Positions 11,963 through 61,929 of a stretch of DNA of 64,000 nt are shown in pieces; the stretch's first letter is position 1, and each line of letters opens with the position of its first letter. A program made the position numbers and the translations under genes. Location: positions 3,123,114 to 3,187,113 of the forward strand of contig JARUPZ010000034.1 in assembly GCA_031213475.1 (NCBI GenBank), read 5' to 3'. Source of the stretch: Nereocystis luetkeana (lineage: Eukaryota; Sar; Phaeophyceae; Laminariales; Laminariaceae). The notes beneath the pieces were generated by a model. The model saw only the letters and a program-made list of their open reading frames with translations. It was not told the origin of the DNA and did no database searches.

Positions 11963-12002
11963 ACCTCGGGGACGACCGGATATTGCAATGTACCAGGTAG
12001 TA

Positions 12003-12132
12003 TATTTGTCGTAACTTTGTGACCACAGAGCTTGTATCTTTAAAGTAATACCTGGTAGGAGGAAGAATCGGCACGCACACTGGGTGTGCTGAATGAGTAG
12101 ACAGAACGGTTAAATGCGAAGAGCACACACAC
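12003..12132 (+). mobile_element. LINE 3'-end fragment
   Basis: It matches the last about 120 bp of the LINE family: TTTGTGACCACAGAGCTTG, GAAGAATCGGCACGCACAC, GGGTGTGCTGAATGAG and the end GGTTAAATGCGAAGAGCACA with a CA tail. Compared with the copy at 39180 it carries an extra TACCWGGTA motif at 12049-12057. Confidence 0.75.
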
Positions 12133-12714
12133 ATCAGATGGGATGGGAAAAAATAAGAAAACATGATGCACCCGATCCATACCTGGTACCAGGGTACATT
12201 GTTCGAGTTGCAACCGAAACCGACGGGACCGCGTCCAAAGAGCAAAACAAACGAAATCAAACGAAATCAAATAAAATCAAATCTCAGGGAGACAAGGAGA
12301 AAAATGTTTTTTTTCAAAACGTGACAGCATGACAGCAGTGCGTCAAATAATGCGCAGGGGAAAACGCAAAAAATACGCAAGATAAAAGCGCGAGATAATA
12401 CGCAGACTTTCATACTCGGAGGCAGGCAGACCGGGGGAGGGTGGCGAACCGAAAAAATGAAAACGTACTCCATCAACAGGAAGCTACAGTAGTTGCTATG
12501 AATACCCGCGCGTGTATAAAAAAAACAAAAAGCGAATCGAAATTGCGAAACAGGAAAAACTAACAAAAAGAAAAAAACGAGAGAAAAATGAGGCAAGCGA
12601 AAAATAGGCACTGGAGGTATACAGAAAGGCGAGGGTGTCCGGGCGGCCCTACGCTAATTACCTCCCAACTTCTTCTCTCCCTTCTCCTTCTTTTGTTGGA
12701 GTTGCACAGTGCTT
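12133..12714. other. No recognised feature
   Basis: A-rich sequence with no gene-like frame and no repeat that I can match elsewhere in the window. Confidence 0.4.
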
Positions 12715-12955
12715 TTCATGAGAGCTGCGTCAGCGATGAACCCTTTCTCGGCAATGGCGCGAGTGTACACCCTTGCCACGAAGACCCTGCTCTACGTCGA
12801 ACATATCTGAGCGCTCGCCCTCATCCAGCCGCACGCATGCTCGCATACCGTCGTGGAATTGACGGATGACGACGAGCATTCTCGGTGACACGCCAGAGCG
12901 ATCTCGCACAGTCCACAGAAGGGTTCGCTCTACGGATGTCGTAGACTTTAGTAAT
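12715..12955 (-). pseudogene. LINE reverse transcriptase fragment
   Basis: On the minus strand one frame reads MLVVIRQFHDGMRACVR, then DEGERSDMFDVEQGLRGKG. This parallels [17 protein letters not shown] and [18 protein letters not shown] at 7222-7330 of the LINE. It is an isolated piece of the reverse transcriptase domain from a related but diverged copy, ending in a frameshift. Confidence 0.75.
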
Positions 12956-13728
12956 GGTGCGAGGTGTATTCTTACACGAGTACCGTTTTGAGTTTATGAA
13001 TTTTTTATGGTATCATATGTACGACCTCGTACTACTCGTACTATCGCTGAATTGCTATTAATAATATGTACGCACACCGCCGAAAACAGGTCTGAGATTT
13101 TTTTTTATTGTCTGGGGATGATGGGACGATGGTGCTGGTTGGTGGCACATTATATGTGATGGGTATGTGCAGCGTGCTTCGGTGGGGGTAGCATCTACTG
13201 TTTGCCTTCTGAGGCAGGCCCCTAGCTCGCGGAGCTTTGCACCGAACCCAAAAACTGATTTAGCGAGAAATGCTAAAAAAGTGCAACCAAATTAACACTC
13301 CCACAGCCTATTATCGCGAATGACGTGTGAAGCACTATTGAATAGTGGTGTTCCAACGATATTGGGTTAGGGAGTCCGATCTGTCAGAAATATTTTTTCC
13401 TTAGAAGGAAAAAGTGCTAGCCCTGTCGTAGCACGCGTCGTGTATTCATGTCCTCGTAACCCTCTTAGAACTTTAGAGGGGAAAGTTGACGATAACAAGT
13501 GATGATGACGCGACGGCCACCGCGTGGTTAGGGGATGATATCTATCGTACATACAAACTGGTGTCAGAGTTACAAGGCAAGGAGTCGTACTGTACGGGGG
13601 CACAATACGATCCTATCCGTGCTTGTGGGTCCTCACGCTGTGCGTGCACGGTTGATGACACTAAAGTTATCATTGGTTTGGTCGCTATCTTCAACACCGA
13701 AAGGGGTTAAACCAGCACGTGTCCATAT
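12956..13728. other. No recognised feature
   Basis: No convincing gene, repeat or RNA. Frames over 13486-13710 have no family resemblance. Confidence 0.4.
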
Positions 13729-13815
13729 CATACCATACCATACCGTACCATACCATACCATACCGTACCATACCATACCATACCATACCATACCGTACCA
13801 TACCATACCATACCA
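13729..13815. repeat. (CATAC)n pentanucleotide microsatellite
   Basis: About 17 units of CATAC with CGTAC variants at intervals. It produces the YHTIPYHTI-type translations on the plus strand and WYGMVWYGM on the minus strand, which are artefacts. Confidence 0.95.
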
Positions 13816-14204
13816 GACGACGATCAACGCAATTGAAGCTGAATGCCACCAAAACGTGTGAGGTTCCCAACCTTTGCATCCTCCATTTCTTGGCACTCCC
13901 GGTTGCTCGCTCGCAGCGCCCCAACGTGCGTGGGTTCCTCTCAGCGCTCCGACCCCCGTGACTGCCTGGCGTCGCCACGTACCGCTTTGCTGCTTCTTGG
14001 GATGTTTGCCACCTCGTCGCAGGTCCGAGTACGCGATCACTATAGGAAGAGGAGGCGAGGCGAGGGCAGTATTTTGCTTGCTACGTATGTCCGTGGCTTC
14101 TGCGGAACGGCTGTGCGTCATGGATGATGAACAGGTGACGCTTGGTGCTGCGCTTGCCGTGTTGTGGGCGCGTACTCTGTGACTAACTTGCGTGTGTTGT
14201 CCAC

Positions 14205-14372
14205 TACGTTGAGTTTCGTACGCAAAACAAATGTGATTTTGCGCTTGCATCTTCTCACGCGTCCCGCTCCGTCTACACAAAACAGTGTGATTTATTTCGT
14301 GCATCTTCTCACGTGTCCCACCCCTCTCGGCGATGGGGTCCAGTACTGCTGCTGTAGCGATGGGGTCGAGCA
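14205..14372. repeat. Short imperfect direct repeats
   Basis: GCATCTTCTCACGYGTCCC occurs at 14248-14266 and 14302-14320, with AACAxxTGTGATTT upstream of each. GCGATGGGGTC occurs at 14330-14340 and 14356-14367. This is a small minisatellite-like region without a gene. From here to 15114 I see nothing else. Confidence 0.6.
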
Positions 14373-15114
14373 CCGACGTGAAAAAGTGTCCAATCAGAAA
14401 ACTGCGGGCATGAAATGTCTCTTTACAGCAGCAGAAGTAGTCTGTGCCAGCAGTGCATGCCGGTATGTATTCGCACCTACTCCGAGCAGTGGAGCAATCG
14501 GGTCAGTAAGCGAAACTTCCATGGACACGTCGATACACCGACCAAAACAGTGCGCAACTCGAACAGATAATCGATTCCTACTTGATGGTCTTAGTCTTTC
14601 GGGGAAGAAGTAGTCCTGATCTGTATGATTTGACTCATATTACTGGGTGGGAGCTGTGTAGTCTGCATGGTCTACGTTAAGCACGTGTGTCGTTGGTTGG
14701 ATCTATCTGTAGATAATTTGTCCGAGCCGTGAATAAATTGAGAAGCGGGCGGCCTCACCAAACACATATAAAAGGGTGGGCGATCTACTCTTAGTGCAGT
14801 ACTATGATGTGTATGATACTCTGTGTATCATACTAACATCATGATGCTGGTGCCAGTACGGATATCGTATCGATAGTTTCGAAATCTGGACATGTTGAAG
14901 TTTCGATACATCATGTCCTTGCGAATGCGTTTTGCTCTCCATCCTCTAGCATCCTCGTTTTTGGTTATGCTGATGCTGAACCAAAGCTTCGTCGTATTAT
15001 ACGATACGTACTGGTTACATGAACTACGAATCAAAATCATGTTGGGTTGATTTCCGTGTGTCGGTATCGTGTCGAGCTCGACTAATATCACTAAAAACGG
15101 TCACGTGGTTCATG

Positions 15115-16130: not shown

Positions 16131-16223
16131 TCCCCCCCATCCTCGATCCCACCCCTCCCCCGACCCCCACCTTCTTGATGACCCGCTATTTATGTACTTC
16201 TTATATATATACCTGGTATATAT

Positions 16224-23900: not shown

Positions 23901-26900
23901 ATGACTGTCACAAAGGCAAGAGCTTGAAGATCGGCTGTTGTACCGTGGCTGCCTAGCCTTTGAGGACTCCTGTGGGCTGTGTGTAACACTTGTCAGGAGC
24001 AAGCTTGAAACGCGGCTGTTGCACCGCGTGGCTGCCTCGCCTTTAAGGGCTGCTGCTCAGCAAGCAGTAGCTCGGGGTTTCCATGGGCCTGCTTGGCCCT
24101 AGCTAGGCGGAAGCCCTCCAAGCGATTGCTCGCCAGATTTCGCGATTTTGAACGCTGAGAGCACGCCCGACTGAACCCAGTCGGGACCCACACTTGCGCC
24201 GTGGTGTACACGCTATAGCCGCCTGCGTGCCCCGTGGCCGAGAGCGCGAGAAAAGACCCGCGACCGGAGGAGAAAATTAAAAGTATTCCAGAATAAGGTC
24301 AATTTGGTACATACCTGGTAGTAATTAATAATATGTACACATGTATATACAAGCAGTACTGCTGTAACACCGTATGGCACTATCACACTAGGGTGAGAAG
24401 ATAACACACACATCACCTGGGACGAATTTCTGAGCCGAGCTTCTCCAAACCCAGGGGGTCACATGCAACGAATATGGTGGCTTTGGAAAGACATCGACGA
24501 GGTTTTCCCATGGACGCATCGCTTGTGGCGTTAGGACCCTTGCCGTTGGGACCCTCGCCGTTGTCGAGAAAAGCGGCTTCGAAATTCGTCAGAGGGGGTA
24601 TGTTCATTCTATCACCCTAGTGTGATACGGTAGGCGTATTTATTAGGTCAGATGCGAGCTTTGTGATCGCTCGGTGGTGCCCTAAAATAAGACTCGAGCA
24701 TGCCAAGGACCGAATTAGGTACCTCTCTCACATAGTAGCAGGGCTCCAAACCACTCAACCCACTGGGGGAAATATTGCCTAACTACGTCCCTGGTATGCT
24801 GGCACTCAAACTTATACTGGTATACAGTCAAGGCCCGCTCGGGAGAAACGTCAGTTTGGCGTTGAGGCTCAATGCCTTATTTGTAGGCACACTCCAGCTG
24901 TATTTCTCAAACATACGCTCTTATTTGCGTGGGCTTTTTCCAACCGCTTCATCTCTTCAACGGGATATTTCTTATTTTTAGGGGGATGTTGGCGGCAAGG
25001 GACTGGACGTGATCTGGTTGATTAATTTATGATAAAAAATGATAAGAAAAACGAAGGAAAACAGGAACCTCCACACTACGGGAGGAGTCCACGGTGTGTT
25101 GGGTGTTGGGTGTTGAACAAAGTGCTGCAGTCCGCGTTTCTTACGTATTTTATTCGGCGTTTCCGAAGAGGAGTTCGTGTTCTCGTATGGGCGCCGATCG
25201 CTGCTGTTTCTTGGGCTGTAATTTTCTATCTTGTCGGCCGGCGTGATCTACATTTCTAACGCCGAATTCCTCGTTCTTCATGAAAGGCCGAGCCTCAATT
25301 TATTACGTACCGATACATTTCTTAACGGCGGGCTTTATCTGTAGAATAGTCATGTTTTGAAGCATTTTGATCATCTTGCGACATCTTGTAAAAAATATGG
25401 CTCCTTAAGTTTAGCGCATGCTGTCCGAACCAGTGCCGCGCACCGGTTGTGAAACATCAACGACGCAAGCACCCGACACAATTCAGCAGCAGTAGCACAA
25501 GAAAACAAGCAGAAACAGGGTCACTCGGACGGTGCAACAATAGACATAAAGAGAACAGCATATGGTCACTCCGACGGTGCACCAATGGGCATGCAGCAGA
25601 ACAGGCCGGAGCCCGTCAGGGCGTCGTGCAGATATTTGCTGCCGATGATGTATTAACATAAACACAGCAAGCATTTAACGACTTGATACTAATAAATGCC
25701 GGTGAACATTTCAAACGTCAGCCGCCGAAGCAAAACGAGCTGTATATATACAGAGGTGCCAGGTAGTCTGTGACTAGAAGTTTCGCTTTTTTTTTTTTCT
25801 TGTGAACAGCATCCATTTCCTCGATCAAAGGGAAGTAACGAATTGGCCGGTCACCTCCGGTAGTCTAGTGGCCCCCGGTGGTCTAGTGGTTACCCTCGAA
25901 TGCTACTATTAATATTACGGGGGACCATAGTTAATAGGACCAAATGTTGTTAGTAAAAATGGTTAAACATATAGGTTTTTATGTTTACCATAGGTCCTAT
26001 CAACTACGGCCCCCGTAATATTAATAGAGTTGATTTCGTTGGTTCCGATCCCACCGTGGTGAGATTGCGGGTTTATTTTTTGGCAGCAATAAGAACAAGG
26101 AATCGACTGCTGAGACCGCGTAGCGTAGGTATGATAGGGGCAATTCGACGAGAGTCGACCCGGCAAGAAAGGGCATTCGTCTTTTTCTCGCGGTAAAAAT
26201 GCAAGGCGCGAACCGTCGTGGGCAGGCGGGAGGAAAGAACCTGCTGTGTGACCCCGAATCTGAGTTACGACGAGAAGGGAGAGCGAAGAGAAGGGGAAAA
26301 ATAGTAGATGTTAGGAGGAAAAATAAAATTAAAACGTAGTGTTCGAAAGCAGAGAGAGGGTAGACAATGGCTCACACTATAAGGGCTTACCCACCCGAGC
26401 AATAGATAACATCACAGCCGGCCCTCCCGGACACACCGATGTATACTCACGAAGACAAATGAGGGAACAGGGACCTTATCAAGCAGTGCAAATCGATTGT
26501 TAGGTTTTCGGCAAGTTTACCCGCCTAACGTCGTGCGTTTTTTTTGTTTTTCAGCGTGGAAGGGTATTACTGAGTGAGAACAGGGGTACGCCATCCTTTG
26601 CGCTCACATACCGAGTTGAATCGCCTTACATTGTGCAACTATTATTAACAATACTGCAAGGGAGCATGGTAGCCAAAACCACCTATAAGTATGCTTAATG
26701 GGGGTATACTTCGTACCTGGTATACGTTTTTTGTTGTCCATCGTGGCTTAAGATTACTAGTAATACCATGGCCTACATGCGTACCATACATACAGCAGTT
26801 GTTTCATTGATGTAGTTGATTTTTCTGTGTGCCTATCTCTCGATCAAGCCGGTGGAACACTAATAACTACGCTAAGTGTTAGTACCGCCGTTGCAGTAAC

Positions 26901-29900
26901 AATGCAAACACCCACTGCCCGGCGGCAGCAAGCTGTAGTCAAACCAGCAGAGGATCGGCGAGGGCTTCAATAGAACAATCAACCAGAAGAAAATGTCGCA
27001 GCCGCCCCCCCCCGAGACACACACTGATTCTCGCGAAAAAAGAGAGTAGGGAGGGAGGAAAAAGCGGTGGAGTCGCCCAATCGCCACTGACTTGCTCTTC
27101 CGGATGGAGAATTTCTCTGCCCTTACGCGATGCAATTAGTTTTTTTGGCAGATTTGATTCCGGCTATGCACGAGATATGGCGGTATTTTGCCAAAGGGAG
27201 GTCCTTGTTTTAGTACCGTCGTAGTCCATAGGATCGCGGCGCAAAACGCGGGCAGACCGCGCAATTATCCCAGGATTCCTGCCAACGTAGAGCCGCAACG
27301 TCTTGGCGCACACGGCGTACGAGCGGGTGTGGCCTTCGGTTCTTCGCTTGGGGAGGTCAGGGAGTCGAGTCCCCGAAGTTTCCGGTGACGGCAAGCAAGG
27401 CGCCGCCGAGATCAGTGAACTATCGGCATTTTGTCTGGTATTTAGAGAGGAAACAATGGTTGTCTTCTGCAGGTCCTCGCAGACAATCGCATACGTGATT
27501 CATGTTGATAAATTAATGTATGGTGCGCTTATTAAAACTGCTGATGTCTGTATATGATACGCGAGAAATGTATATACCTCGAAGTGCAAGTAGTCGTCTT
27601 CATCAGTGCCAGCTGCTCGAGGCCCGCACCGACATCGTCTCGAGGTTGCTTTGCCCCCCCCCATATTATGTACGTGATATATATAATATATGTATAGATT
27701 GGGTTGGCGTCGGTTGGCGGCGACGCTATAAAACACGCCTCTCACTGCGTGAGCGAGACAGTCAGGGTTCCCTTTTTTTTGTGGCGGTTACCATGGCTGC
27801 CGGTCGAGTTGGATCATTTTGTGCGGGGAAAAACCTCAAGTCCGCACAACGGGGATGATCGTATCACGTACCTGGTAGTGTGTGTATGGTAAGGCACCCA
27901 CGAGGTAGTTACATAGTAAAACCCATTGCTGTCTCTGAAAGTTGGAAGTGGCCACACATGAAAGTAAATCAAATCATTGACGTTGTCATCCCTATGCAAG
28001 AAAACCCGCCTTAAAGGCGTTACTGAGGGTCGTTCTTATCGGATTGGACAGCTTTTCCCCCATATTTTCCATGTTTTTTGCGAGCAATTTTTTTATCTCC
28101 TAGATTTTCCTGATTTTTCTTCCAAATATGTGAAATTTAGCAAACCCGTTTTTTTGCTTCGGAGAACTTCACGAATAGCTTCAGAACGCCTCCGTATCTT
28201 GATACATGTCTCCCATTATTTTCAAACGTTGGACATTCTGGAAACAAAGCTTTCCGATAAGAATAAGCCTTAGTAGGATGTTGCTCACGCTTCATGCGAC
28301 TCGCCCGACACCTCACGGCGCTTCGCGCTTGGTACAAGTAAGCAATGTCGGGCTGGTAGGTGAAAACCCGCCGTGCTCCGCCCCGGCATTGTAGGGATGT
28401 GAGGGTCTATGGTCATACGACTACGGCCATGCATAACAATGAGTACACCCCCCTTCCCCCCCATAACCCGACGCTCCCCCGTTCTTGTTCCGCCTATGGT
28501 CGGATGAAAGAAGAAGCGCGGCGCTTGGGATAACATTTTATGATTCGAAACGACGTCGTTTTCCGTGGTATATAGACATTGAGGCACCCCCTCCTCCTCT
28601 ATACTTGAAGGCGCGCGCAAGATAAGACCGCTTCTCGTCAAGGAAAGTGGCAGGTTCTCGGGGGCGTTTCCCTTCAACGCACGTTGAGAGCAGACTTGCC
28701 GTTGTTCCTTGCTCAAGAGCGCGATTTTTTGTCCCGAAGGTCACAACAGTGTTGCCCTTTTTCACATTCCTCTTTTCCTATTGAACAATTCTGCTGCCTG
28801 CGCAGTGTTCTGGCGACGCGGGGTTTCTTCAAGAGCTGCTTGGCGACCTGGTGGCTGAGGCCGGCCCGCACATGGATATATTGCGCGAGTGTGTCCCCCA
28901 GGGGTCCATGCTTGTGAGTATGCCTTCGTCCTGCGGTGCGAAGCGCCTCGTTGTTTTTTTTTCGCCGAATTGACTTTCGAATATCACTGCTGTCGTGGCG
29001 ACTGCGCGCTTCCTGACAGTGTGTTTCCTGTGCGAGCGAGCAGGAAATTCCCGACGGCGGTGGGTGTGAAAGCTGTCCCCGACAAAAGCAGTAGCTGACG
29101 TCATTGTCGTGTTTCCTCGCCCTACTTACTGCTGTGGCATCCGTGTAGTCGTACTCTTGCCGCGGATTTTCAAATTTGTTGGTTAGAAAGGAAACAAACG
29201 AGAAAGTGGAGACCAGGGCCCTCAACCAGAGAGCGGCAGCGGGCCTAATCGGTCTGGTGGAACCCGATGGAGGACCCCGTGTATTCCAGGCGCTTGTGGT
29301 GGAGACAGCGCGGGTTCGATCATCGGCGACCATCTCTATTGTACTGCCGGGTTAATATTTACACATACTTTCTGCATGTTTTACCGTCGCACCGGTCAAG
29401 GTAATTGGTCTCGTGTGCCTCGTGTGCCCCGCGTCCTTGCGTGGCGTTGAAAAGCACGCCCGTTCCGAGCACTCTTTCGCACAAGGCGGAAGTCTAGGAC
29501 AGAACTATCACCATCCCGATATCGCCGGGCGGGCCAGCATGAAGTCGCAGGGGCGACGACGCGTGCGTACACTCGTGCGCGCTATTCATATTGGAGACGC
29601 TGGCGAGTGCCTCGCTGGCAACTGGCGACCGCTGTTCGCACCGACCACCGGTATGTGCATACCCTCTCTCCGCGCGCGTGCGCTTGGGTTGGTTGATGTC
29701 GGTTGGGTTGCTCTCTTCTTGCTCAAAACTCCCTGTGTCTGTTCTTGTGGGTGCCTGCTTCTCGAATCTTGATGATCAGGAAACCAAGCATGCTGCGCAC
29801 TCCATAAAGGGCGCAGCCGCGAACTTGATGTGCCACCGTGTGCGAGTGGCCTCCATGTACCTCGAGAAAGCGGGGCAGGCCGGCATGGCCCTTCAAGAAG

Positions 29901-31318
29901 GTGAGGGACGATGGCTTCGATTTGCTTGATGGACCCTGCGTCCAGCTTCATCGGCGTTGGAGCACGGCAGTCCATGCCCACGCATACGCTGCCACAATAG
30001 TAAATGAAACGTGTCTGGTGCGTGGGTTGTGGGGCTGCACTCAGCAGATGAGTGGCGGTTGACCAGCCTACCATAACCGGTGTATTTTTTGTGAGCGTGA
30101 ATCGGCCCCGCCTCTTCTAGGTTTCGTTCTTGAGACGGTTGAGCGACGTAAACTCAACTACTTGTAACCGTTAGCTTTTGGAATCGCTGAGCCACAGTTG
30201 CACCTACAACCGTTTACTTGTGGGATGGCTGATCCTCGTAAACTACTACCGGTATTTGTGACCGTTTTGACAAAGAAGCGAGAGTGCCCATTCGTGCGGG
30301 CAGGCTAAATTGTGTCCCGACAGTCTTTAAGCAGCAGTTGGTCCGATCCCGTGACAAAAGGACGTATCTGCCGAGTTGCTGGTGGACGCTTCTTCGGTGT
30401 TTGGAGTGATACAGTGGGCGTCGCCTGTTGTGTCCGAAGGAGGCGTTATTCGGTGACATTTAGTCCATCTCCATGGCCGGAGCCTGTTGGAGGTGGGTGG
30501 CATTCGCTCGAATGGGCCCCAGCGTGGTGTTACCCAACCTGTTCGGCTAATCTAGACCGCTCATCCTTTTCGAGATGGAGCACACCAACGGCCGGTGGGA
30601 GACGGAAGTGGGCGGACTTTTCCGCTATCATTATATTATCACGGTAAACGCAAGTACTGACAGTAGAAGTGTATACCAGGTACACATGCTAACATCATGG
30701 TACAACGCCTGTGAAGTCAGGAAACCGCTCGTCAGTGTTACTTTAGATTTCGTCGTGCGCCCCGTGGAAATCGCGGTACATATCGTCAAGAATATAGCCT
30801 ATGACCATGGATAACCTATCGCTCTACAAGTACCAAGTACACCCAGGATAAAACGCGCCGCAATAAGAGAGCACTCTAGGACGGGTTTCAGTGCTTCAGT
30901 CGAAATGGAGCCTCTGGAATAAAGCGGCGAGATTGCGAGTAGCTTCTTTGAGAAAGGCGGTACCAACTAGGAGATCGGGTCAAAAACGCTACAGATCCTT
31001 GAACACATGCGATTTCAGCAACCCCCGCTGGGACATGGCTCACGACGAAGAAGAAGCGGACCAAAAGGTGGACCTCATCGTTAGGAAACGGGAAAACGAC
31101 TCGGAAACCATCGAGGTTTGAGAGCCCACCACCTCCAATATCGTACATTTATTTATATTCATTTCCAATTTGCCTTCATCGGTTGCCCGTTTTCGTGATA
31201 CGTGACAGGTGGAGAGGAGTGGATGAAAGTAAAGAAGGATATGCAGGCCGGTCTGCAGAACTTAACTCAGGAGCTGGTGCGCTTTGAGGAAATGCTGAAG
31301 CAGAAACGGCTATCTTGA
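17929..31318 (+). CDS. Histidine phosphotransfer (HPt, Ypd1-like) protein, four exons
   Basis: HPt proteins carry phosphate on a histidine between hybrid sensor kinases and response regulators. My model joins 17929-17988, 28806-28913, 29780-29900 and 31209-31318, ending at TGA 31316-31318: 399 nt, 132 residues, the usual size for a stand-alone HPt. Donors read CAG|GTACGG, CTT|GTGAGT and AAG|GTGAGG; acceptors read TGCGCAG, GATCAG and GTGACAG. Phases agree (0, 0, 1). Helix landmarks in order are TKIIDWDAALDQ, GDAGFLQELLGDLVAEAG, then the phosphorylation motif HAAHSIKGAAANL (acceptor His about residue 63), LEKAGQAGMA, and the closing helix LTQELVRFEEMLKQK. The spacing from FLQELL to AHSIKG matches the family. 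The start is uncertain: the frame is open upstream to about 17830 with coding-like codons (KKHVVKCGKDLVG), so an earlier exon or start is possible. The exons are GC-rich at third positions, unlike the surroundings. No promoter is visible. Confidence 0.85.
18097..18165 (-). mobile_element. LINE 3'-end scrap with (GTT)n
   Basis: (GTT)n at 18105-18125 is followed by CTCACATTAA and later CGTGGTCACACAAAG. On the minus strand this reads like the LINE end GTTTAATGTGAAGAACAACAA with the upstream TTTGTGACCACAG. It begins about 110 bp into HPt intron 1. Confidence 0.5.
19851..20525 (+). repeat. 171-bp tandem array, about 3.9 units
   Basis: The word CAATTGTGCTATACGG recurs at 19862, 20033, 20204 and 20375, exactly 171 bp apart. 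As 171 is divisible by three, one frame stays open across the array and predicts a repeating 57-residue peptide (GYPSIVLYGGH..HHAAVPK). Substitutions between units are not clearly biased to third positions by eye, so coding is doubtful. Confidence 0.95.
20575..22020. repeat. GATC-rich minisatellite inside the hAT-like element
   Basis: Units of about 60-65 bp combine GGGATCTGTATGATCTAGATC, then TTACATACATGTTT and GCCAGGTG. Two blocks (20575-21115 and 21445-22020) are separated by about 330 bp of unique sequence. Related GATC-rich sequence (family J) occurs at 53100, 57852, 60306, 61195 and 62850. Confidence 0.9.
22557..23391. mobile_element. Harbinger-like TIR element E, copy 1
   Basis: Ends GACCTATGCCAATGGGA and its near-complement TTTCCATTGGCATAGGTC lie at 22560 and 23388. 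A 3-bp TTA flanks both ends (22557-22559 and 23389-23391). TWA target duplications are the hallmark of PIF/Harbinger elements. The 829-bp interior shares about nine bases in ten with copy 2 at 46333. On the minus strand it encodes fragments such as PARYLARPTSID, SLPAASYGILPNLKK and GWVGAPNERT, split by a frameshift; I do not recognise this protein. Confidence 0.8.
23640..24065. repeat. Degenerate tandem repeat, about 173 bp
   Basis: CTGCTGCAGSATCCCAAGRC is found at 23647 and 23820, and each copy is followed by CGACATACAC, CA-rich DNA, TGTCACAAAG and GGCTGTTGTACCGTGGCTG-like words. A third partial unit lies at 24000-24060. No gene. Confidence 0.65.
24369..24631. mobile_element. MITE family D, copy 1
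   Basis: The ends ACCGTATGGCACTATCACAC and TAGTGTGATACGGT are inverted repeats. Interior words are GGACGAATTTCTGAGCCGAG, TGGCTTTGGAAAGACATCG and CGCCGTTGTCGAGAAAAGCG, shared with the other D copies. No coding capacity. Confidence 0.8.
25863..26338 (+). mobile_element. SINE interrupted by a family A MITE
   Basis: The tRNA-like head CCCCGGTGGTCTAGTGG and TTACCCTCGAATGC (25869-25903) is separated from its box B GGTTCCGATCCC (26041-26052) by a 106-bp MITE. The body then follows with TTCGACGAGAGTCGACCCGG, then TCTCGCGGTAAAAATGCAAGG and GAATCTGAGTTACGACG. Removing the MITE restores the normal box A to box B distance. Confidence 0.75.
25914..26019. mobile_element. MITE family A, copy 1 (inside SINE)
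   Basis: An almost perfect palindrome about 106 bp long. It begins ATTACGGGGGACCATAG and TTAATAGGACC, and ends GGTCCTATCAACTACGG and CCCCCGTAAT. The flanks CTATTAAT and ATTAATAG may be a 6-bp target duplication (ATTAAT). It has no coding capacity. Confidence 0.85.
27690..28450 (+). repeat. Repeat family G copy interrupted by MITE C
   Basis: Starts GATTGGGTTGGCGTCGGTTGG and ends CTACGGCCATGCATAACAAT, then GAGTACACCCCCC. The normal join GCGGTTCTTAGTAGGATG is split by the family C element at 28032-28268. It carries an exact 7-bp insertion CCTGGTA at 27871-27877 relative to sister copies. Confidence 0.8.
28032..28268. mobile_element. MITE family C, copy 1
   Basis: Ends CGTTCTTATCGGA and TCCGATAAGAATAAG are inverted repeats. 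The interior has ATGTGAAATTTAGCAAACC, AACTTCACGAATAG and GATACATGTCTC, matching the copy at 34673 in reverse. Flanking TTACTGAGGG and TTAGTAGGAT may be a worn 9-10 bp target duplication, which would suit a Mutator-like element. Confidence 0.75.
28914..29779 (+). other. HPt intron 2, 866 bp
   Basis: Starts GTGAGT and ends GATGATCAG. A long open frame continues from 29591 into exon 3 without a stop, but the reading before AHSIKG then loses the expected helix. The splice from 28913 to 29780 restores the normal HPt spacing, so I treat this as intron. Confidence 0.75.
29901..31208 (+). other. HPt intron 3, 1308 bp
   Basis: Starts GTGAGG and ends ACGTGACAG. It contains no transposon that I can match. 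A frame at 30891-31121 with MAHDEEEADQK has no supporting family or splice evidence. Confidence 0.7.
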
Positions 31319-38795: not shown

Positions 38796-39079
38796 CTACC
38801 AGGTATACCAAAGGTACGCATGGGTATCCGTTTAAAAAATAGAGCTACTGAAACATCTCCACTACACGAGCAAAAATATCTACCAGGGTATATCTATTCC
38901 TGCTGAAATCGCGCTCTGGTGGAGTACGGAGGCGGTCTGAAGAGATGCAAAACAAAGTGTGTGCCTTTGGCGGAAAGGAGTTGATCTACTCCTTGAATTC
39001 CGCAGCTTCAGATTTTGTCTTCCTCATACGAATGCGGACTGCATTTCCTTCATGAGGCCATACAGCAGCAGTATTGAAT

Positions 39080-40204: not shown

Positions 40205-40441
40205 GATAATGGTGCTACTGCTACTACTACTGTAATAATTTTAATACGGCAACTATTACTGGTACTACTACCACTATTAATATCTCAATTGCTGCAACTA
40301 TACTTGCTGCTACTATTAATATTAATACTACTCATGTTCCTCCTACTCCTACTACTAATACTCCTGTACGAGATACTACTACTTATACTGCTACAACTAC
40401 TATACTGCTACTATTAATATTACGTCGTAACAACTACCTGG

Positions 40442-40491
<50 letters not shown>

Positions 40492-42699: not shown

Positions 42700-43830
42700 C
42701 CAAACAACAATAAAACCCAGTATTGATAATTCTTACAACCGGTTAGGCAGGCAGGACGTTTCTCCGGTAGTCAAAAATTAGTCCCTTTCGTTGACCGAGG
42801 CTCACAGCCAATCCAACAGTTTTTCAAAACGCGGTACCAGGTAGTTCTTACCCTTGTCCCCATCCCTCACCCTAACCCTCACAATCCCCAAAAAACACTA
42901 CGAGTACAACAGAGTAGTTATTTACTACTGGTTCGGCACCAAGTTTCTATCACGGGGGACCATAGTAAATATACCAACTATTGTAGGTAAAAATACCGAA
43001 ATATGTAGGTTTTTGTCTGTACCGTAGGTCCTATTTAATATAGCCCCCCTTAATAGGATTTTTCGAAGCTCTTCGTTCACCTGACAGTTTTTAGCCGGCC
43101 ACTTGCAACCCTATACCCGTGTCCCTAACCTTAAAAGCCAGTAGTTCTTAGAATCGGTTCGGCGGCAAGCTTCTACAGCGGTGCGTGTAGGATTTTTTTA
43201 CTCTCCCTCTTCTTGGCCGAGTGTCACAACCCGGGACCTGGTACCAGGTACCAGGTAGCTTTTAACCTGACCCTCCCCATCCGTTGAACCCCAATCAACT
43301 TCAAAAACCAGTAGTTATTTCGTACAACCTGTTCGGCAGCATTTTTTTACCGTGGAGGAAGTTTTGTACTCCCTCTTGTTGGCCGAGGATCATATCCAGT
43401 TGTTTGAACAACTGGATCAGCGGCAAATTTCTAGGAAGTTTTTTTCTCCCTGCTCTTGGCCGGCGACCATTTCCGCATATATGCCGAATCGGTCGACACA
43501 AGGGCTGCAAAGAAGGATCCTGCAACAACATCAAACCAGTATTCCCGAACCAGTATGTTAGAGTCTTGCCTGTGAAATTCTGTCATAGAATCGAGTCTAC
43601 AAGTTGTGTTTCATGTACCAGGTATACCGATTTGTGAGTACTGGTTTGGGGTGGGAGAATTTGACAGATTAGGCTCTATCACACTGGTTTGGGAATTCTG
43701 GTCTGGGTATGTAGTGTCTCTAACCTGTGAATTGCTGGCCCAGAGTCGGGTCTACAAATTGTTTTTTTTCTCTTATTCAACGCCAAACCAGTAGTATGGT
43801 GTCTGACCTCGGATTTTTTCACACGTAATG
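42700..43830. repeat. Degenerate ~170-230 bp tandem repeat block
   Basis: The anchor CCAGTAGTTNTT followed by a GGTTCGGC-like word recurs at about 42718 (worn), 42913, 43140, 43309 and 43536 (worn). Units also share CTCCCTCTTSTTGGCCGAG. A family A MITE and several TACCAGGTA motifs are inserted. A CCCTAACCC telomere-like word occurs at 42870. No gene. Confidence 0.6.
42950..43056. mobile_element. MITE family A, copy 2
   Basis: Runs from CACGGGGGACCATAGTAAAT to TATTTAATATAGCCCCCCTTA. It shares the central word ATATGTAGGTTTTTGTCTG with the reverse of copy 3. The ends are more worn than in copies 3 and 4. Confidence 0.75.
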
Positions 43831-44285: not shown

Positions 44286-45865
44286 ACATAGCCACCTGTA
44301 AACCTGTGTAGGCGGCGGGTGTAAATTTTCATTGACCGCAATAGACCAACTATTATGGATTGTTTTTAGCCGGTATTTCTGTTTTTCTCAATGATCTCCG
44401 AGAAAGCTCTAGAATCTGGACCATTTGTTTTGGGGGCCAGTAGGAAAGTTAATCGATATTTTTTGTCTCAGTTCTCAGACGGAGGGCACACATCGGCGAC
44501 ACATCTCAGAACTGTACCCCGTTCTCAGAGCTCTTGCACGCCCCTCAAAACGAAAGATGAGGAGTGACGATTGACGGCACTTCGTCGTGTGATGTGAGAG
44601 CAATGTTGCAATTTTGGACACAAATGTTGTGACCCATTCTTGCTTCTGTATACGTAACTATTTGGTCTCGGTGTGGAATAAAATGCCGTGATCGCTGCAC
44701 CTTTTTTCGGTGGATGCGCCGTCAATCCACATCTCTGTCCTCATAACTGGGTTATTTTGATTTTGGGCACTACGTACTGCCCTTCTGCCGCACACTTCCC
44801 GTCATCCGCACCGAGGCATCGCACCTACGTATGTCAAGCTGTACCTACAGCGTACGCTGCGGCTGCAAGAGTGTCTGCTTCTTCCTCGCTTGGAACCGAT
44901 AGCACAAGCAACGGCAGCAGCGATGGCGATTCGACGTCGCCGGCGATAGTCCTCCCGTACTTACAAGCCGAGGCAACGATCGTGGCGGGCGTCGACTCCG
45001 CTTCCTTTGACGCAGACAAGACCAACCAATACTACAGCAGTATATAAAACCAGTTTCCAAAATCAGAAGCCTTCCTATTCTAATGGACGTCCGATAGGCA
45101 TCTTCCACATGTTTTTGGAGGCTGATAACTATGAGAAGAGATCGCCACCAGTATTGGTTCACGTTCTTTCCCATGCACTACAGCAGTAGTTGGTCTTACG
45201 GTACGATGTATTGTTATGCTCGGGCGAGCCACCGCTTCGGCAGTTGGCAGCCCTGCTATTAATAGTTCAGACGTGCGTTGACATGTCGGTTGATTCAGTA
45301 GCAGCATCATATTTATTATGTAGCTGGTGTACCACAGTATTGCGTCATAACTAAATGTAGACGTTTATGGTCAACTTAAGTGAGTGTAAAGACATGTACG
45401 CAACGTACAGTGAACACTGTTATGGTTATTAATAGTGCAGATAGTTATGCTTTTATCCCCATCAAGAAATGGATAGTGTCGGTATACAGGTTAATGGGGG
45501 TATTCTCGTTGTATTTGCCTGTTGACCCTGGATTACATCCCGGGGAGCTGCTTGCTACACCAGGGTTGGTGGTGTCTTTGTCTTTGTTGCGGCCGACCTG
45601 AAAATAAAAGCTTACCAGGTAGTTGACTTCGTGTCGACGGCTGTGGTTATGCCTTTTCATATACGAGTACTACTGCTGCAGTTATGTCTAGTTTCGTCAG
45701 TACGTACGGCAGTAGTGCCAATAGTGCCGAATCTACAGCAGTAGGCATGTATTCTGCTGCGAGGCAACGCGAAGAGCGTTGTGTCCGCGACTATCATATT
45801 TACCATTTTGGGACTGATAGCGCCCAAACAAACGACTTATAATGTGGTGTTACACGCCGTCTCGT
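44286..45865. other. No firm gene; one Ser/Thr-rich open frame
   Basis: The frame ending at 45047 contains ARVSASSSLGTDSTSNGSS and AEATIVAGVDSASFDADK, with fairly G/C-rich third positions over 44830-45030. It could be a fragment of an exon. I recognise no domain and see no convincing splice sites. The rest contains TACAGCAGTA and TATTAATA motifs only. Confidence 0.3.
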
Positions 45866-47160: not shown

Positions 47161-49879
47161 ACAATCCTTTCGTCAATGTCGGGACATGGTGGTTCCCAGC
47201 CTTGATGTTGATAGCGTGAGCTAGCGGCAAAACATGTATTATTATACCAGGTATACCACTATGCTACTGCTGTGCCTTGTGTATGTATTTCAGCGTGTCG
47301 AATGGTCATGTTTTGTACTGTTTCATACAGTAAATAGAATACACGTGTCCCCTTTCAAGTTGCGCTAAGAGTTGGTAATTGAAGACTTGGGAGACGTCTA
47401 CTGTACCACCTGGTGCAGGTCACGAGGTACGAAGAGAAGCGGGTATCATCTTTGGTACAGGTAACGAGGGACAGGTAGGAGCAAGTATTTAGTGTATGGT
47501 ATCACACGTACGAGTAAGGCAAACGGCACGTACACTATTACGGGGGGCCATATTGAATAGGACCTACGGTGTAGACAAAAACCTATATATTTCGCTATTT
47601 TTACTAAAAATATTTGGTCCTGTTTACTATGGTCCCCCGTAATACTACACAGTCGTAATACTACACAACCTCGTACTCTGGTAAGTGTTGCCAGTGCTAT
47701 TAATAGTGAGTGTAACACACTGAGCGGAGCGACTGTGGCAGTTTCAAAGTAATGTCGGAATATCCATGGTTGGTATCGTGTCGACGGAAGGGCGAACCGG
47801 CAGAAGATGTGAGCCTAGATGCACATCAACATGCATGCATGCGGAGCAAGCGCAGTGGTCACTTGTCTCGGTTCGGTGTTGCGCGCACAACTAGGCGAGT
47901 GTACGTAGCAGAAAAACACCAGCGGACGGCACGAAACTACCCGCTGTTGGTGTGTATAGGCCTAGTTTTCTTGTCTCAATGGACTACTGGTAGTTACTTG
48001 GTATCTTGATATCAGGATTCGTATGTAGCTTGACTTGTCCATGCACTTGTAGTAGTATCATTCCTATTGGTGTGTATCAACTCGTACACAAGGATTTTTA
48101 CATTTTTACGAACCCCCAATTTGTAGCCACCTCGTGTTGTACATAGTATAACTTGGTACGTACATTCGAAGTATATATATGCACCTATAAATAGTACCAG
48201 TTTACATCAGCGCTTGATAGAATATAACATTTTCACATTTTGTTTGACCTGTTGGTACACGGTACGAAACAGACCGGGCGTTGTTGCCTCTGGTTGAAGT
48301 TGACCCTACAAGCCAGTTATCTACCCGATACCGGCTAGTGCCCCACCCTCTCTCTCCCCAAGAAGTATTGCGTGCTCGTCCTGGCACACCGCATCGGCCA
48401 TTTTGTCGAAAACGCCTACAGCAGTACCGCTACAGACAAGAGATCCTAGCGGCATGGTAAAGCAGTAGGCAACCTCTATCAATAGTTACTCTCCTGCGGT
48501 GAAGTCTTTTTTACTACCGCTATAAATAACCGCATTCCGCACTATTTCAGTTTCCTCACTAATGCCAAGTAATGTATCCCCAAAAACATGGATGCAATTT
48601 TACAGGAGTTTAGAAAGACCGATTTCGCGCAAAAGGCTATTTATTGTACCATACCGGGTGCAGTTCTGCAGGGCGCCATCCGACGGACCCTACAAGACCT
48701 GCGCGCGCATATTAATTTCGTGGAGCTCTTGAGGTTGTCCGAACATAAACCTCCTCCAAACAGCCCTCAACGCCGTTTCCAGATTTTTTGTCTTTTTTTT
48801 TATACCCCCGATCAGCCAGGGGTATTTTTCTTGTAATTTTGTTTCTCGTTATATCCGGGTACTGTACCTTTAATTTATCAGAGCATCCTGCCGCGCGAAA
48901 GACAGTCTGTAATTTCGTAGTTTCGTCGTATTCCGTGAGTTATCCCCTCTCTTGAGCTGGATGAACCTGCCATCCTATAGATTGTCTAAAGCCGGAGGTC
49001 CCGTAGCTATGCTCGTGGTTGGAAGCCGGAGATCCGCGCAGTTCAACCTTACATCTCTCCTCTTCCTTATGCTTCATCTATGCCTTCTACCACCGCTACC
49101 AGCGAACACAGCCGGTAGTAGTTGGCCACAGCCGTAGCGCGAATCCACCGGCGTGAGGTCCCAGCGAGAGCTACTACAGTACTGTAGCTACCCTGTCTTA
49201 CACTCACTCCTTTCGCCTTCCAGAGCACCCGCACACTTGAATATATCCGAGCAGTAGGTGTTGTAAGAGTACTTGTTGCAATAGCCACCGACCTCGCGAG
49301 GAGCCTGGTGTTGATGGTATTATTGTACTCGCTCGTAAGCTGTAATACACGAATTCGTGGGCGCGTGGGTGTAAATGTGTGTGTGTGTGTTTTTTTTTTC
49401 TCAAAGACAGCACACGCCAACAGCGGTTGATGTGGCTGGTGATACAATACGGCCAACCGACAGCGAATACCGGTACGTAGCAAATAAGCCTATTATTAAC
49501 GTATCGCAGGGCAACAGATACGTACGTACTGGTAGCAGGACCTGGTACTGCCGTAGGCCTCTGGAAGACGCATTTTTTGCGACGAAAACAATGGTTGGTA
49601 AATATGGTGTTGTCAACCATCTGTGTAGGAGCAGCGTCAGCGCTCAGCGGACCAGCAGTAGTACGGGTAGAATAGGACCACGTTGCACCCGCGCCGTACG
49701 GCTCGTTTCATTCAACCATTTTCACGCGGACATCAACCTACTGCTGTACATCATCCCATCCCACAATCAGGCAGTGGTCGTTGCACTTGTTATGGTCACG
49801 TTTCCCGTCGGAAGACCCCAAGAGGGGGTTACTACCGACCCAAGAACACGCGTGACAGCACACGCATACACTCGGACGA
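47161..49879. other. No recognised gene apart from one short frame
   Basis: 48588-48836 is an 82-codon frame (MDAILQEFRKTDFAQKAIY) with a TATAAATA word about 70 bp upstream at 48520-48527. It may be a small gene or chance; I recognise no family. A family A MITE lies at 47537-47643. The frames over 49375-50187 overlap a D element and are not genes. Confidence 0.3.
47537..47643. mobile_element. MITE family A, copy 3
   Basis: Runs from ATTACGGGGGGCCATATTG to TTTACTATGGTCCCCCGTAAT. Its interior AACCTATATATTTCGCTAT and TTTTTACTAAAAATATTTGG is shared with copies 4 and 5. Confidence 0.9.
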
Positions 49880-50090: not shown

Positions 50091-50304
50091 GGGACCCATT
50101 TATAGCGACTTTTTTTCAAGTGCCGCACGTCAACAGCGGTTGATGCGGTTGATGTTCCTTCAACCCAAAGCAACTACCAGGTATTAAATACCAGTCTGAT
50201 CGTAAATATATGGGATTTTTATATGGTAACAAAATGTCGCAGTGTACGTACCATATACTTTAGTTCGGACTGGCAGCGAATAACCCATAATTGGTAGTAG
50301 TAGT

Positions 50305-51552: not shown

Positions 51553-51681
51553 ACGGGTTGTGCATGGCCTCATGAAGGATACCAGGTATCATTACCGTAG
51601 GGATCCCTCTATAATGACGGCTTAATACTGCCGGTGCCGGGTGTAGTGCGTGTGAAATCGCTTGGCACAGATGGGGTTAAC

Positions 51682-54690: not shown

Positions 54691-54967
54691 ACCAGGTATA
54701 TTCACACAGGGGGGGGTATTCCAAATATAGTCAGTACTTTTTTTTTAATCGTCGAACATAATTAAATCCTATCCCACTACAATAGTTGGTTTTTCATTCC
54801 GAAGTTTTTTCGTACGTTTAGCGTTTTGTCGTTTTCTCTTTTTGTCGCCCACTTTTCTAGGAAGGAGTGTTTTTGCCAATTCTATTGATGGCGGAAAGGT
54901 TCCGACGTAGCAGTTGACAAGAAATGTCGTAGTCCATGTGATATGATCGGCGCTACCGTATAACACT

Positions 54968-55074
54968 ATTACGGGGGACCATAGTTAATAGGACCTGTGG
55001 TATACAATAAAACCTATATATTTCACCATTTCTACTAACAATATTTGGTCCTATTAACTATGGTCCCCCGTAAT
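54968..55074. mobile_element. MITE family A, copy 4
   Basis: The cleanest copy: ATTACGGGGGACCATAGTTA then ATAGGACC, with GGTCCTAT then TAACTATGGTCCCCCGTAAT. The two arms match over about 27 bp around a central AT-rich spacer. Confidence 0.9.
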
Positions 55075-55079
55075 ATTGA

Positions 55080-55350: not shown

Positions 55351-55817
55351 TGTGCCCTACTCCAAACAGTTTCATAGTACTCTGTAGTGCTGATAACTTG
55401 GCCCATCATCGGCAAAATGGTTGAGATAGTGCGCACTGCAGTACAGTAGTAGTAGCTCCTCATTACATGTTCGGTCGGGGCTTAATACTGCTGTAGTGTT
55501 TCACCCTTTCAATAAGGCACTGCTGTGTAGAAACCCTAGTCTGGTGTTTCGTCCACAACAGGAGTGCAGTCCTGGACGGGTTCGTGAAGCAGTACCTGGT
55601 ACTGCTTACCACTTGTTCGAGGAAATGGTTGATAGACACTGTTGCGCATGAGTCAAAGGGACTGACGCTAAACATTGGTTGATTTGGTCTGATTGGCTTA
55701 GGCTCATGTTTGGTTCTTTCCGTCTTGTTCACAGCTTGTGACAACCATTTTCTTGAGTATCTGGTACCAGGTATGTGGTATAAACTTCCCTCATTCAACG
55801 CTTTGAGTGCTGCACTG

Positions 55818-59044: not shown

Positions 59045-59175
59045 CCTCTTATTTTGTCTCCGTCCTCCGCACTGCGATATACCTGGTATACATACGTGTA
59101 TTGCAACTTTTATCGCGACTCGAGTGCGTTCAACCGTTTGTTCCGTCGTCGACTCGCGTCTGGAGTAGCGTATGC
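59045..59175 (-). mobile_element. SINE fragment, reverse orientation
   Basis: CTTTTATCGCGACTCGAGTG and CCGTCGTCGACTCGCGTCTG match the minus strand of the SINE body. A TACCTGGTATACAT insertion lies at 59080-59093 where the 9290 copy reads CTACGGCACG. Confidence 0.6.
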
Positions 59176-60305: not shown

Positions 60306-60545
60306 TGCGTTCGTCGACTGAGACCTATCGATCTGCCAATCGGATGCGGCCTACGCACATCGGCACAGATCATCTAGATCATTACTATCCTAACGTTCCC
60401 TCACGAGATGCTGCGCAGGATCTGTATTGCACAGATCCAACCTGTGCTAGACCATGCAGGTTGTTCTGTTCCCACCCGGCGACATGAGCTAGACCATAGA
60501 GACCAAGAACATAGCTTCCCGGACACATCTAGATCGTGGGAGTGG
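60306..60545. repeat. GATC-rich repeat family J, copy 3
   Basis: ACAGATCATCTAGATCATTA, GGATCTGTATTGCACAGATC, CCACCCGGCGACATGAGCTA and CACATCTAGATCGTGGGAGT match the other J copies in order. Confidence 0.7.
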
Positions 60546-60775
60546 GGATCGAGATGTGAGCTCCCGTGAACACGGTTGCAGCCTCTGAGGGATGAGCTGG
60601 TATCAGTCGTATGACTGTGTGGCGCCGGCACCTATTCGGGCCCTCGCTGGTTCGATCCCAGTAAGTTAAGAGCCAACCGGCCCGTATGACTAGCGGTCCG
60701 TGTGAGTGGGGGGAAGGGCTCGAACGCCGCTGGAGACGCCTAAATGTCTGTGCTGCCCAGGTGAGTAGACACTAA

Positions 60776-61165
60776 CTAAACACAACACTAGCCAAACGTT
60801 ACAATATCAATAGCCCAATAGTGCCCTATTCATAGCCAAACGTTACACTATTAATAGCCGAACAGTACACTAGCCAAACGTTACACTATTGATAGCCGAA
60901 CAGCACACTAGCCACACGTTACTCTACTAATAGCCGAACAGTACAATATCAATAGCCCAACAGTACCCTATTCATAGCCAAACGCTACACTATTAATAGC
61001 CGAACAGTACACTAGCCAAACGTTACACTATTGATATCCGAACAGTACACTAACCAAACGTTACTCTGTTAATAGCCGAACATTACACTAACCAAACGTT
61101 ACACTATTAATAGACGAACAGTCACTAGATAAACATTACACTGGCCAAAGGCTACAGTAGCCGAA
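60776..61165. repeat. Minisatellite, about 37-40 bp unit
   Basis: About ten units of AGCCAAACGTTACACTATTA with ATAGCCGAACAGTACACT. Each unit contains a TATTAATA or TATTGATA core. Confidence 0.95.
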
Positions 61166-61194
61166 CGTTTTTGTTTACAGCCTTACACACGTTG

Positions 61195-61452
61195 GACAGA
61201 TCACGATCTATGTATATACAGATATATCATCTACAGATAGATCATCTACTCGTTCATCTCCTCGGAGAACCTATCCTGCTGTGATGAGATGTTGTACGGG
61301 ACAGATCCAACCCAGGAAACATGTCCTAGATCATGTAGATTATAAACGGCTCCCACCCGGCAATATGACCTATAGATCACACAGATCATACAGATCACAT
61401 AGATCAGGAATGTATCTGCCCAGAAAGATCTAGATCATGATGAGGGTGGGAA
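61195..61452. repeat. GATC-rich repeat family J, copy 4
   Basis: ACAGATAGATCATCTACTCG, GGGACAGATCCAACCCAGG, CCACCCGGCAATATGACC and AGATCTAGATCATGATGAGG. Confidence 0.75.
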
Positions 61453-61574
61453 TGATCTGCAGATTAGCTGTCTGGGGAGTGCAATCTTGTTGGGGGATTT
61501 GTTTTGTTTATCGTCACTTTTACAGTAGGTTCCAGCTCAACTCGCAGCTTCTATATGATAGGGCTATTATTAAG

Positions 61575-61765
61575 GCTCATCCTTACCGGAGGGCTTCTTT
61601 TCCGGAATTTCCAAAGGTTGGAAATATCCAGAGAACTATATCAATATTCGAAGGCGTTCTGTCACTATTCGTGATATCCTCCAGAAGCAAAAAAATCATG
61701 TTTGTTAAATTTCACACATTTGGGGGAAAAAATCAGGAAAAATCAGGAAAAATCTGGAAGACTAA
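61575..61765. mobile_element. MITE family C, copy 3, right end lost
   Basis: Left end CTCATCCTTACCGGAGGGC, interior GAAGGCGTTCTGTCACTATT and TGTTAAATTTCACACATTTG as in the copy at 34673. The right terminal repeat is missing. Confidence 0.75.
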
Positions 61766-61929
61766 CAAAATGACATGGTTATAGACTTCAGTATAGTAAG
61801 CAAGCTAACTGACTTTTTAGCCCGACTATTTAGCTAAACACACACGCATCAGTCAGATACCAGGTATACAGTACATACAAACTGCACGCAAGTCCTCAAT
61901 TTTCCGTGCGCAACCATAACTAACTGAAA

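What the first reader, a model, noticed from the sequence alone, without database searches (positions are those of the whole stretch)
11991..61866. Hundredfold excess of the near-palindrome TACCWGGTA, seen as exact 7-bp insertions
I count at least 38 exact TACCTGGTA/TACCAGGTA 9-mers from 11991 to 61866 and none before. About 0.5 would be expected in 64 kb of random sequence. About 20 fall in 36.2-43.7 kb. Sister repeats show that some are insertions. Repeat G reads ATCACGTAGTGTG in the normal copies, but ATCACGTACCTGGTAGTGTG at 27864. A LINE end reads CCTAGAAGAGATAC at 39173, but the sister at 12049 has CCTACCAGGTATTAC (minus strand). The rule TA to TA-CCWGG-TA is what a TA-targeting (Tc1/mariner-like) transposon would leave on excision if its ends were CCW..WGG. 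That reading is an inference; I see no such transposon in the window.
Basis: partly seen in the sequence, partly recalled or inferred. Interest (0 to 1): 0.85.

Follow-up and report, generated by a model that had tools for sequence, protein, structure and literature searches.

The report
Genome-wide scars of a missing transposon
This genome carries the same tiny scar, seven extra letters at a TA, about once every 2.5 thousand bases, most likely left when a jumping gene cut itself out, so the DNA keeps a record of a very large number of jumps by an element that was not found.

Summary
The window has 40 exact TACCWGGTA sites, about 0.7 expected. Its 465-Mb genome has 182,395, against 1,744 for the backwards control, and 15,917 head-to-tail doubles against 2. 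Sister repeat copies show clean 7-bp insertions, TA to TA-CCWGG-TA, at a handful of sites.

Best reading: excision footprints of a TA-targeting cut-and-paste transposon, probably with 5-nt cohesive overhangs that clash only in the middle. Two other TA-targeting families here fit scars of their own: a TTACGGGGG MITE shares its target context with TATTAATA scars (CTATTAATAG 22,282 vs 267), and a low-copy pogo-like family with CAG ends fits TACWGTA scars.

The CCWGG parent was not found: none in a 316-kb sample, and no excess of CCWGG-ended elements of 47-107 bp genome-wide; longer ones were not testable. Decay of roughly 4% means the scars are old. Footprints are known; this density, the 5-nt form and the missing parent are unusual.

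The parts
10890..10898 (.). CCWGG footprint
10972..10980 (.). CCWGG footprint
11991..11999 (.). CCWGG footprint
12049..12057 (.). CCWGG footprint in a LINE-related repeat; sister comparison not a clean 7-bp change
12180..12188 (.). CCWGG footprint
16210..16218 (.). CCWGG footprint
24312..24320 (.). CCWGG footprint
26714..26722 (.). CCWGG footprint
27869..27877 (.). CCWGG footprint (T in the middle) in a repeat; several sisters have TA only; sister L017:7455 has a footprint at the same TA with the opposite middle base
30674..30682 (.). CCWGG footprint
33632..33640 (.). CCWGG footprint
34472..34480 (.). CCWGG footprint
36239..36247 (.). CCWGG footprint
36612..36627 (.). two CCWGG footprints sharing a TA (A then T)
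36771..36779 (.). CCWGG footprint
38124..38132 (.). CCWGG footprint
38220..38228 (.). CCWGG footprint
38400..38415 (.). two CCWGG footprints sharing a TA (A then A)
38497..38505 (.). CCWGG footprint
38605..38613 (.). CCWGG footprint
38797..38805 (.). CCWGG footprint
40163..40171 (.). CCWGG footprint
40435..40443 (.). CCWGG footprint
40843..40851 (.). CCWGG footprint
40987..40995 (.). CCWGG footprint
41275..41283 (.). CCWGG footprint
42835..42843 (.). CCWGG footprint
43242..43257 (.). two CCWGG footprints sharing a TA (A then A)
43616..43624 (.). CCWGG footprint
45613..45621 (.). CCWGG footprint
47245..47253 (.). CCWGG footprint
50175..50183 (.). CCWGG footprint
51580..51588 (.). CCWGG footprint
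55593..55601 (.). CCWGG footprint
55765..55773 (.). CCWGG footprint
59080..59088 (.). CCWGG footprint
61858..61866 (.). CCWGG footprint
54967..55075 (.). MITE of 109 bp with both TAs, ends TTACGGGGGACCATA, proposed source of TATTAATA scars
47536..47644 (.). second complete copy of the TTACGGGGG MITE
62996..63007 (.). TACTGTACAGTA, two TA-CWG-TA scars sharing a TA; 10-bp insertion relative to sister copies

Best explanation
Each TACCWGGTA is the scar of one insertion and later excision of a TA-targeting, cut-and-paste DNA transposon whose inverted ends begin CCAGG (or CCTGG). Insertion duplicates the TA. On excision the transposase cuts five bases inside each end, leaving 3' overhangs CCAGG on both sides. 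These pair at four of five positions with an A:A (or T:T) clash in the middle; repair keeps one base or the other, giving TA-CCAGG-TA or TA-CCTGG-TA. A scar's own two TAs are good new targets, so scars stack. Shown: the excess, insertion at TA, W rather than S in the middle, stacking, target preference, decay. Inferred: the transposon, its ends, the overhang and the repair. The parent is now rare, diverged or gone. (Confidence is for this five-base form; for an excision footprint of any form I would say 0.82.
For: 182,395 sites vs 1,744 control in the own genome. In 259 kb CCWGG between two TAs stands at 119 sites vs 2.5 expected; the forms with S in the middle have 10. Exact 7-bp insertions in sister copies. 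Strict test: 131 footprints examined, 5 with a usable sister, 3 of these 5 with an empty-TA sister and none with a same-length substitution; of 600 random TA-N5-TA sites 90 had a sister and 3 an empty TA (Fisher P 0.001). The same TA of one repeat carries CCTGG in the window (27869) and CCAGG in L017, so probably two events. 15,917 doubles vs 2 control, 6.2 times the random re-hit expectation. T before the TA at 4% vs 19% for all TAs (95 sites). Other families: 33 ends reading TTACGGGGG and 60 TATTAATA scars share the T-A-C-[TA] context, CTATTAATAG 22,282 vs 267; pogo-like family with TA-CAG ends, 15 inverted pairs within 3 kb, and TACWGTA sites with empty TA in 5 of 9 that had sisters vs 2 of 73 controls. 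Mariner/Stowaway excision leaves the TA duplication plus short end sequence: PMC4561436 (passages). Sleeping Beauty footprints TACAGTA/TACTGTA: PMC4378557 (passages).
Against: No parent: screens of 316 kb found no TA-flanked inverted-repeat element with CCWGG ends; pairs 47-107 bp apart 529/539 vs 630/636 control genome-wide; a guessed CCAGGG-type end 136/141 vs 179/180 control. PMC7913693 gives 2-4 bp for Tc1/mariner footprints (passage); this one is 5. In the 59 '+' rows printed, 19 doubles are mixed (A with T) where 29.5 are expected from independent events (P 0.009), so some doubles may be plain tandem duplications. Only 5 of 131 sites had a usable sister in the strict test, and 4 of those 5 also had sisters of other lengths. 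For TTAA the sister test is weaker: 4 of 9 empty vs 7 of 71; for CCGG 1 of 7 is empty and 6 of 7 share the site.
Confidence: 0.6

Rival explanations
1. Also an excision footprint, but the parent's ends begin only CCA or CCT: three-base overhangs meet with one base overlapping, leaving CC + W + GG. A window candidate is the 80-bp TA-flanked inverted repeat at 17307-17386 with ends CCACTCTGTMCCTG.
For: The 80-bp element exists with TA on both sides. Minor scar forms fit a CCA end: CCATGG 4 vs 1.0 (two-strand count), CCAG 29 vs 15.0.
Against: Such ends are not cohesive, which fits poorly with so uniform a scar; one complete copy in 316 kb; its genome-wide count could not be obtained.
Confidence: 0.22
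2. Tandem duplication or slippage of a TACCWGG heptamer (microsatellite-like growth).
For: Doubles and one run of four exist; 40 of 59 printed doubles are of one kind (A-A or T-T, counted).
Against: 182,395 sites but only 15,917 doubles. Mixed doubles are common (19 of 59). Single insertions arise at a bare TA.
Confidence: 0.04
3. A selected or functional palindrome, such as a protein-binding or methylation site kept in excess, in the manner of cyanobacterial HIP1 (recalled).
For: Near-palindromic and highly iterated.
Against: Sister copies gain it in one 7-bp step; other palindromes (TATTAATA, TACWGTA) also appear as insertions at TA; one-mismatch forms are in excess, as for decaying relics.
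Confidence: 0.04
4. Scars of programmed somatic DNA elimination (as in ciliates), so that the elements exist in a germline genome but not in this assembly.
For: Very many uniform scars and no parent seen in the assembly.
Against: Scars decay (94 one-mismatch forms vs 45.6 expected) and related TA-targeting elements remain in the assembly.
Confidence: 0.03

Closest known systems
Sleeping Beauty / Tc1-type excision footprints (TACAGTA, TACTGTA; PMC4378557, passages read)
   Same: TA kept on both sides, short end sequence between, one ambiguous W in the middle.
   Different: Three bases there, five here; there the element is known, here not; here 182,395 exact sites in one genome.
Stowaway / Mariner MITE footprints (PMC4561436, passages read)
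   Same: 2-bp duplication and a few end bases left at excision.
   Different: This scar is uniform, stacked and genome-wide, and no MITE with fitting ends was found.
pogo-like DDE_1 transposons of the same genome (TA-CAGTGGGGGGCCC ends)
   Same: TA on both sides, inverted ends, low copy number.
   Different: Ends begin CAG, which predicts TACWGTA, not TACCWGGTA; no link to CCWGG shown.
TTACGGGGG MITE of the same genome
   Same: TA target; its target context matches that of TATTAATA scars.
   Different: Many copies remain, whereas none was seen for CCWGG; its scar has 4 bases between the TAs.

Membership tests
Tc1/mariner/pogo (ITm) excision footprint | Added bases lie between two TAs; the empty allele is a single TA | tested here: met
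   (few sites had usable sisters)
Tc1/mariner/pogo (ITm) excision footprint | Added bases are the end bases of a TA-flanked inverted-repeat element of the genome | tested here: inconclusive
   none with CCWGG ends in 316 kb; no excess at 47-107 bp; longer ones beyond the pattern limit
Tc1/mariner/pogo (ITm) excision footprint | Footprint of 2-4 bp (PMC7913693, passage) | tested here: not met
   five bases between the TAs; so it is described as working like such a footprint, not filed as a confirmed member
Tc1/mariner/pogo (ITm) excision footprint | DDE transposase of the superfamily in the genome, tied to this scar | tested here: inconclusive
   DDE_1 28 hits; DDE_3 none, controls rang in 3 of 14; Transposase_1 none, controls silent; none tied to CCWGG
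Sleeping Beauty-type footprint (TACWGTA) | 3-bp CWG between TAs | tested here: not met
   this motif is CCWGG; CWG is a separate class here
Microsatellite / tandem heptamer | Copies mostly in head-to-tail arrays of one kind | tested here: not met
   182,395 sites, 15,917 doubles
PIF/Harbinger excision | 3-bp duplication, usually precise excision (PMC4561436, passages) | tested here: not met
   2-bp TA with five added bases

The most novel reading that the evidence does not exclude
A transposon known only by its scars: a TA-targeting element with a new, five-base cohesive cut has jumped of the order of a hundred thousand times in this lineage while its own copies stayed below a few thousand or vanished, so that scars outnumber copies by about forty to one or more, the genome is a datable record of jumps, and the scars themselves became preferred landing sites.
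Probability: 0.42. Interest if true: 0.85.

Novelty: new variant of a known kind. Interest (0 to 1): 0.72.

Why it matters
Excision scars are usually studied a few at a time in transposition assays. Here one genome holds about 182,000 exact copies of one scar, one per 2.5 kb, and some 22,000 of a second kind in its commonest context, so repair outcome, target choice and age could be measured directly from sequence. A 7-bp insertion shifts a reading frame, so this is also a large and uniform source of small insertions that repeat annotation would probably miss. If the parent is gone, the scars may be the only evidence of it.

Tried and rejected
Rejected: L024:2141-6126 looked like a 3,986-bp element with perfect CCAGG ends, but its inverted repeat runs on outside the motif (my reading that it is LINE-like sequence is judgement). 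TACCTGGTGAG hits looked like a shared end but read like splice donors (judgement). CCWGG pairs in the window with long matching ends are stacked scars. A CCAGGG...CC...ATAG end modelled on the pogo and MITE ends: 136/141 vs 179/180 control. CGAG/CTCG (Minos-like, recalled) is enriched (38 vs 11.1), but all 3 sites with sisters had other sequence of the same length, so not supported as scars.

Limits: the TIR screen listed 203 pairs, of which only those with dissimilar outer flanks were printed. Loci L003, L005, L006, L008 were left out of the 316-kb set as overlaps, and L001-L008 out of the 259-264 kb counts; about 5 kb of the fetched DNA reads N. The 33 TTACGGGGG ends include a few that are not clearly the MITE. 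Only 8 of 28 DDE_1 loci were read. Not obtained: the organism (I suspected a brown alga from recall of LINE proteins; untested); genome counts of TACCACTCTGTNCCTG, TACCSGGTA and CCWGGT-ended pairs (not completed).

Papers: no paper of the held open-licence library holds TACCWGGTA and none holds excision footprint + transposon + brown algae. In the other searches I saw only the listed rows, 15 of 174, 12 of 47, 8 of 32, 2 of 2 and 3 of 3; none of those titles or abstract starts concerns genome-scale scars. PMC4561436, PMC4378557, PMC9976928 and PMC7913693: passages only.
Full report
Observation. The window holds 40 exact TACCWGGTA sites, against 0.54 in dinucleotide shuffles and 0.74 under a third-order Markov model, 7.4 under a fifth-order one. 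Twenty of 40 lie in 36.2-43.7 kb; 17 of 37 collapsed sites fall in one 7.5-kb stretch, which 0 of 3,000 random draws of TA sites reached. The window is part of contig C34 of a 465,085,209-base genome in 1,987 contigs. In that genome the motif occurs 182,395 times; the same pattern read backwards occurs 1,744 times. In twenty 10-kb pieces plus the window there are 119 sites in 264 kb, 0 to 10 per 10-kb piece.

Insertions. When footprint-bearing repeat copies are compared with sisters, the motif appears as a clean 7-bp insertion at TA at L009:9130, L017:7455, L017:7651, L024:2960 and L025:1921. In a strict test of 131 sites only 5 had a usable sister; 3 of these had an empty TA, none a same-length substitution, and 4 also had sisters of other lengths. 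Of 600 random TA-N5-TA sites 90 had a sister and 3 an empty TA (P 0.001). At one repeat position the window has TACCTGGTA and L017 has TACCAGGTA at the same TA, which suggests two separate events, or one A/T change.

An unbiased scan. Listing 4-40 bp insertions between repeat copies showed other TA-flanked palindromic insertions: TA-TTAA-TA, TA-CCGG-TA and TA-CWG-TA, the last also as a double at 62996-63007. A scan of all TA-X-TA words in 259 kb puts CCWGG far ahead among words with five bases (119 sites vs 2.5 expected). TTAA has 122 vs 11.9 and CCGG 28 vs 7.7 (two-strand counts of true palindromes, so 61 and 14 sites), CWG 90 vs 41.6. The middle base is W at 119 sites and S at 10. The split between A and T says nothing, because the motif is its own complement apart from that base.

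Stacking. TACCWGGTACCWGGTA occurs 15,917 times genome-wide against 2 for the control, about 6 times what random re-hitting of TAs would give (TA number extrapolated from 264 kb). Among the 59 forward rows printed, 23 are A-A, 17 T-T, 14 A-T and 5 T-A. Independent events would make half of them mixed; 19 of 59 are (P 0.009). So re-insertion can explain part of the doubles and tandem duplication may explain part. In the 264-kb sample 5 of 12 adjacent pairs are mixed.

Target and age. At 95 single scars the base before TA is T in 4%, against 19% for all TAs, and A is favoured at -6 (45% vs 26%). One-mismatch relatives of the motif occur 94 times where 45.6 are expected; scrambled motifs give a ratio of 1.10 with sd 0.32. 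Taken at face value that is about 0.4 decayed per exact scar, or roughly 4% change per base. The scars are therefore old and inherited, not fresh somatic events.

Two element-scar pairs in the same genome. A MITE of 109 bp including both TAs, with ends TTACGGGGGACCATA, is common (two complete copies in the window). Of 33 ends reading TTACGGGGG, 19 have T, 22 have A and 14 have C at the three places before the TA; TATTAATA scars show the same context (T 53%, A 62%, C 53% at 60 sites). CTATTAATAG occurs 22,282 times vs 267. In the sister test 4 of 9 TATTAATA sites had an empty TA vs 7 of 71 controls. Second, the pogo-like DDE_1 search gave 28 hits. Two of them, L033 and L035, share 288 identical bases that begin within one base of a TA. 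The end TACAGTGGGGGGCCCTATATAG, with up to 2 mismatches, occurs 20 times forward and 21 reverse, 27 of 41 exact, with 0 in the control; 15 inverted pairs lie 1.06-2.6 kb apart. Such CAG ends predict TACWGTA scars; 9 of 109 TACWGTA sites had sisters and 5 of these an empty TA, vs 2 of 73 for random TA-N3-TA. The link from each element to its scar is inference from matching ends and context.

The missing parent. My screens of 316 kb showed no TA-flanked inverted-repeat element with CCWGG ends other than stacked scars and one inverted duplication that I rejected. Zero seen allows up to about 4,400 copies genome-wide. A genome-wide pattern for elements of 47-107 bp whose ends are CCWGG not followed by T gave 529/539 against 630/636 in the control. 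A guessed longer end gave 136/141 against 179/180. DDE_3 gave no hit; Transposase_1 gave none, but nothing rang in its control genomes either. Longer elements, or ends beginning CCWGGT, were not tested genome-wide.

Mechanism. I favour overhangs of five bases, CCAGG on each side, which pair at four of five positions and clash only in the middle. That gives exactly CCWGG and explains why the scar is so uniform: 139 exact sites in 344 kb, against 8 of CCAGGG, 2 of CCATGG and modest excesses of shorter forms. Sleeping Beauty leaves the three-base analogue (PMC4378557, passages), and mariner/Stowaway elements leave the duplication plus short end sequence (PMC4561436, passages). PMC7913693 gives 2-4 bp for Tc1/mariner (passage), so five is outside that range. 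A form with CCA ends and a one-base overlap is kept as a rival; the 80-bp element at 17307-17386 would be a candidate.

Verdict. Footprints as such are known; the scale, the five-base form, the stacking and the missing parent make it a new variant. No paper in the held open-licence library contains the motif, and the rows listed by my other searches did not show genome-scale scars.

Noticed in passing
window 18509, 55876 and 24 other TATTAATA sites; genome-wide: A second scar type, TATTAATA (CTATTAATAG 22,282 vs 267 control genome-wide), matching the context of the TTACGGGGG MITE. Not every TATTAATA site need be a scar.
   Followed up: partly
window 53656-53979: 324-bp TA-flanked element with inverted ends CCGGCACTATAGAGGC; further ends at 53572, 53995 and L013:4850.
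   Followed up: partly
window 59483-59748: 266-bp TA-flanked element with inverted ends CCGTATGRCACTATCA.
   Followed up: no
window 17307-17386: 80-bp TA-flanked inverted repeat with ends CCACTCTGTMCCTG; possible parent under the CCA-end rival.
   Followed up: partly
G000 C1:12363651-12366262 (L035) and 14 other pairs: Low-copy pogo-like family with ends TACAGTGGGGGGCCCTATATAG, 27 of 41 ends exact; L033 and L035 carry a DDE_1 domain and share 288 identical bases, which suggests recent activity.
   Followed up: partly
window 36200-43700: Strong local clustering of scars (17 of 37 collapsed sites in 7.5 kb); old DNA, a hot zone or local hopping not distinguished.
   Followed up: no
window 20749-21841: Repeated TGATCTAGATC words in a repeat-rich stretch; GATCTAGATC is a further over-represented palindrome.
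   Followed up: no
window 7190-7885: Reverse transcriptase fragment (RVT_1) of a LINE-like element; the first 10.8 kb of the window carry no CCWGG scars.
   Followed up: no
L024 2141-6126: Large inverted duplication that imitates a transposon with perfect inverted ends.
   Followed up: yes
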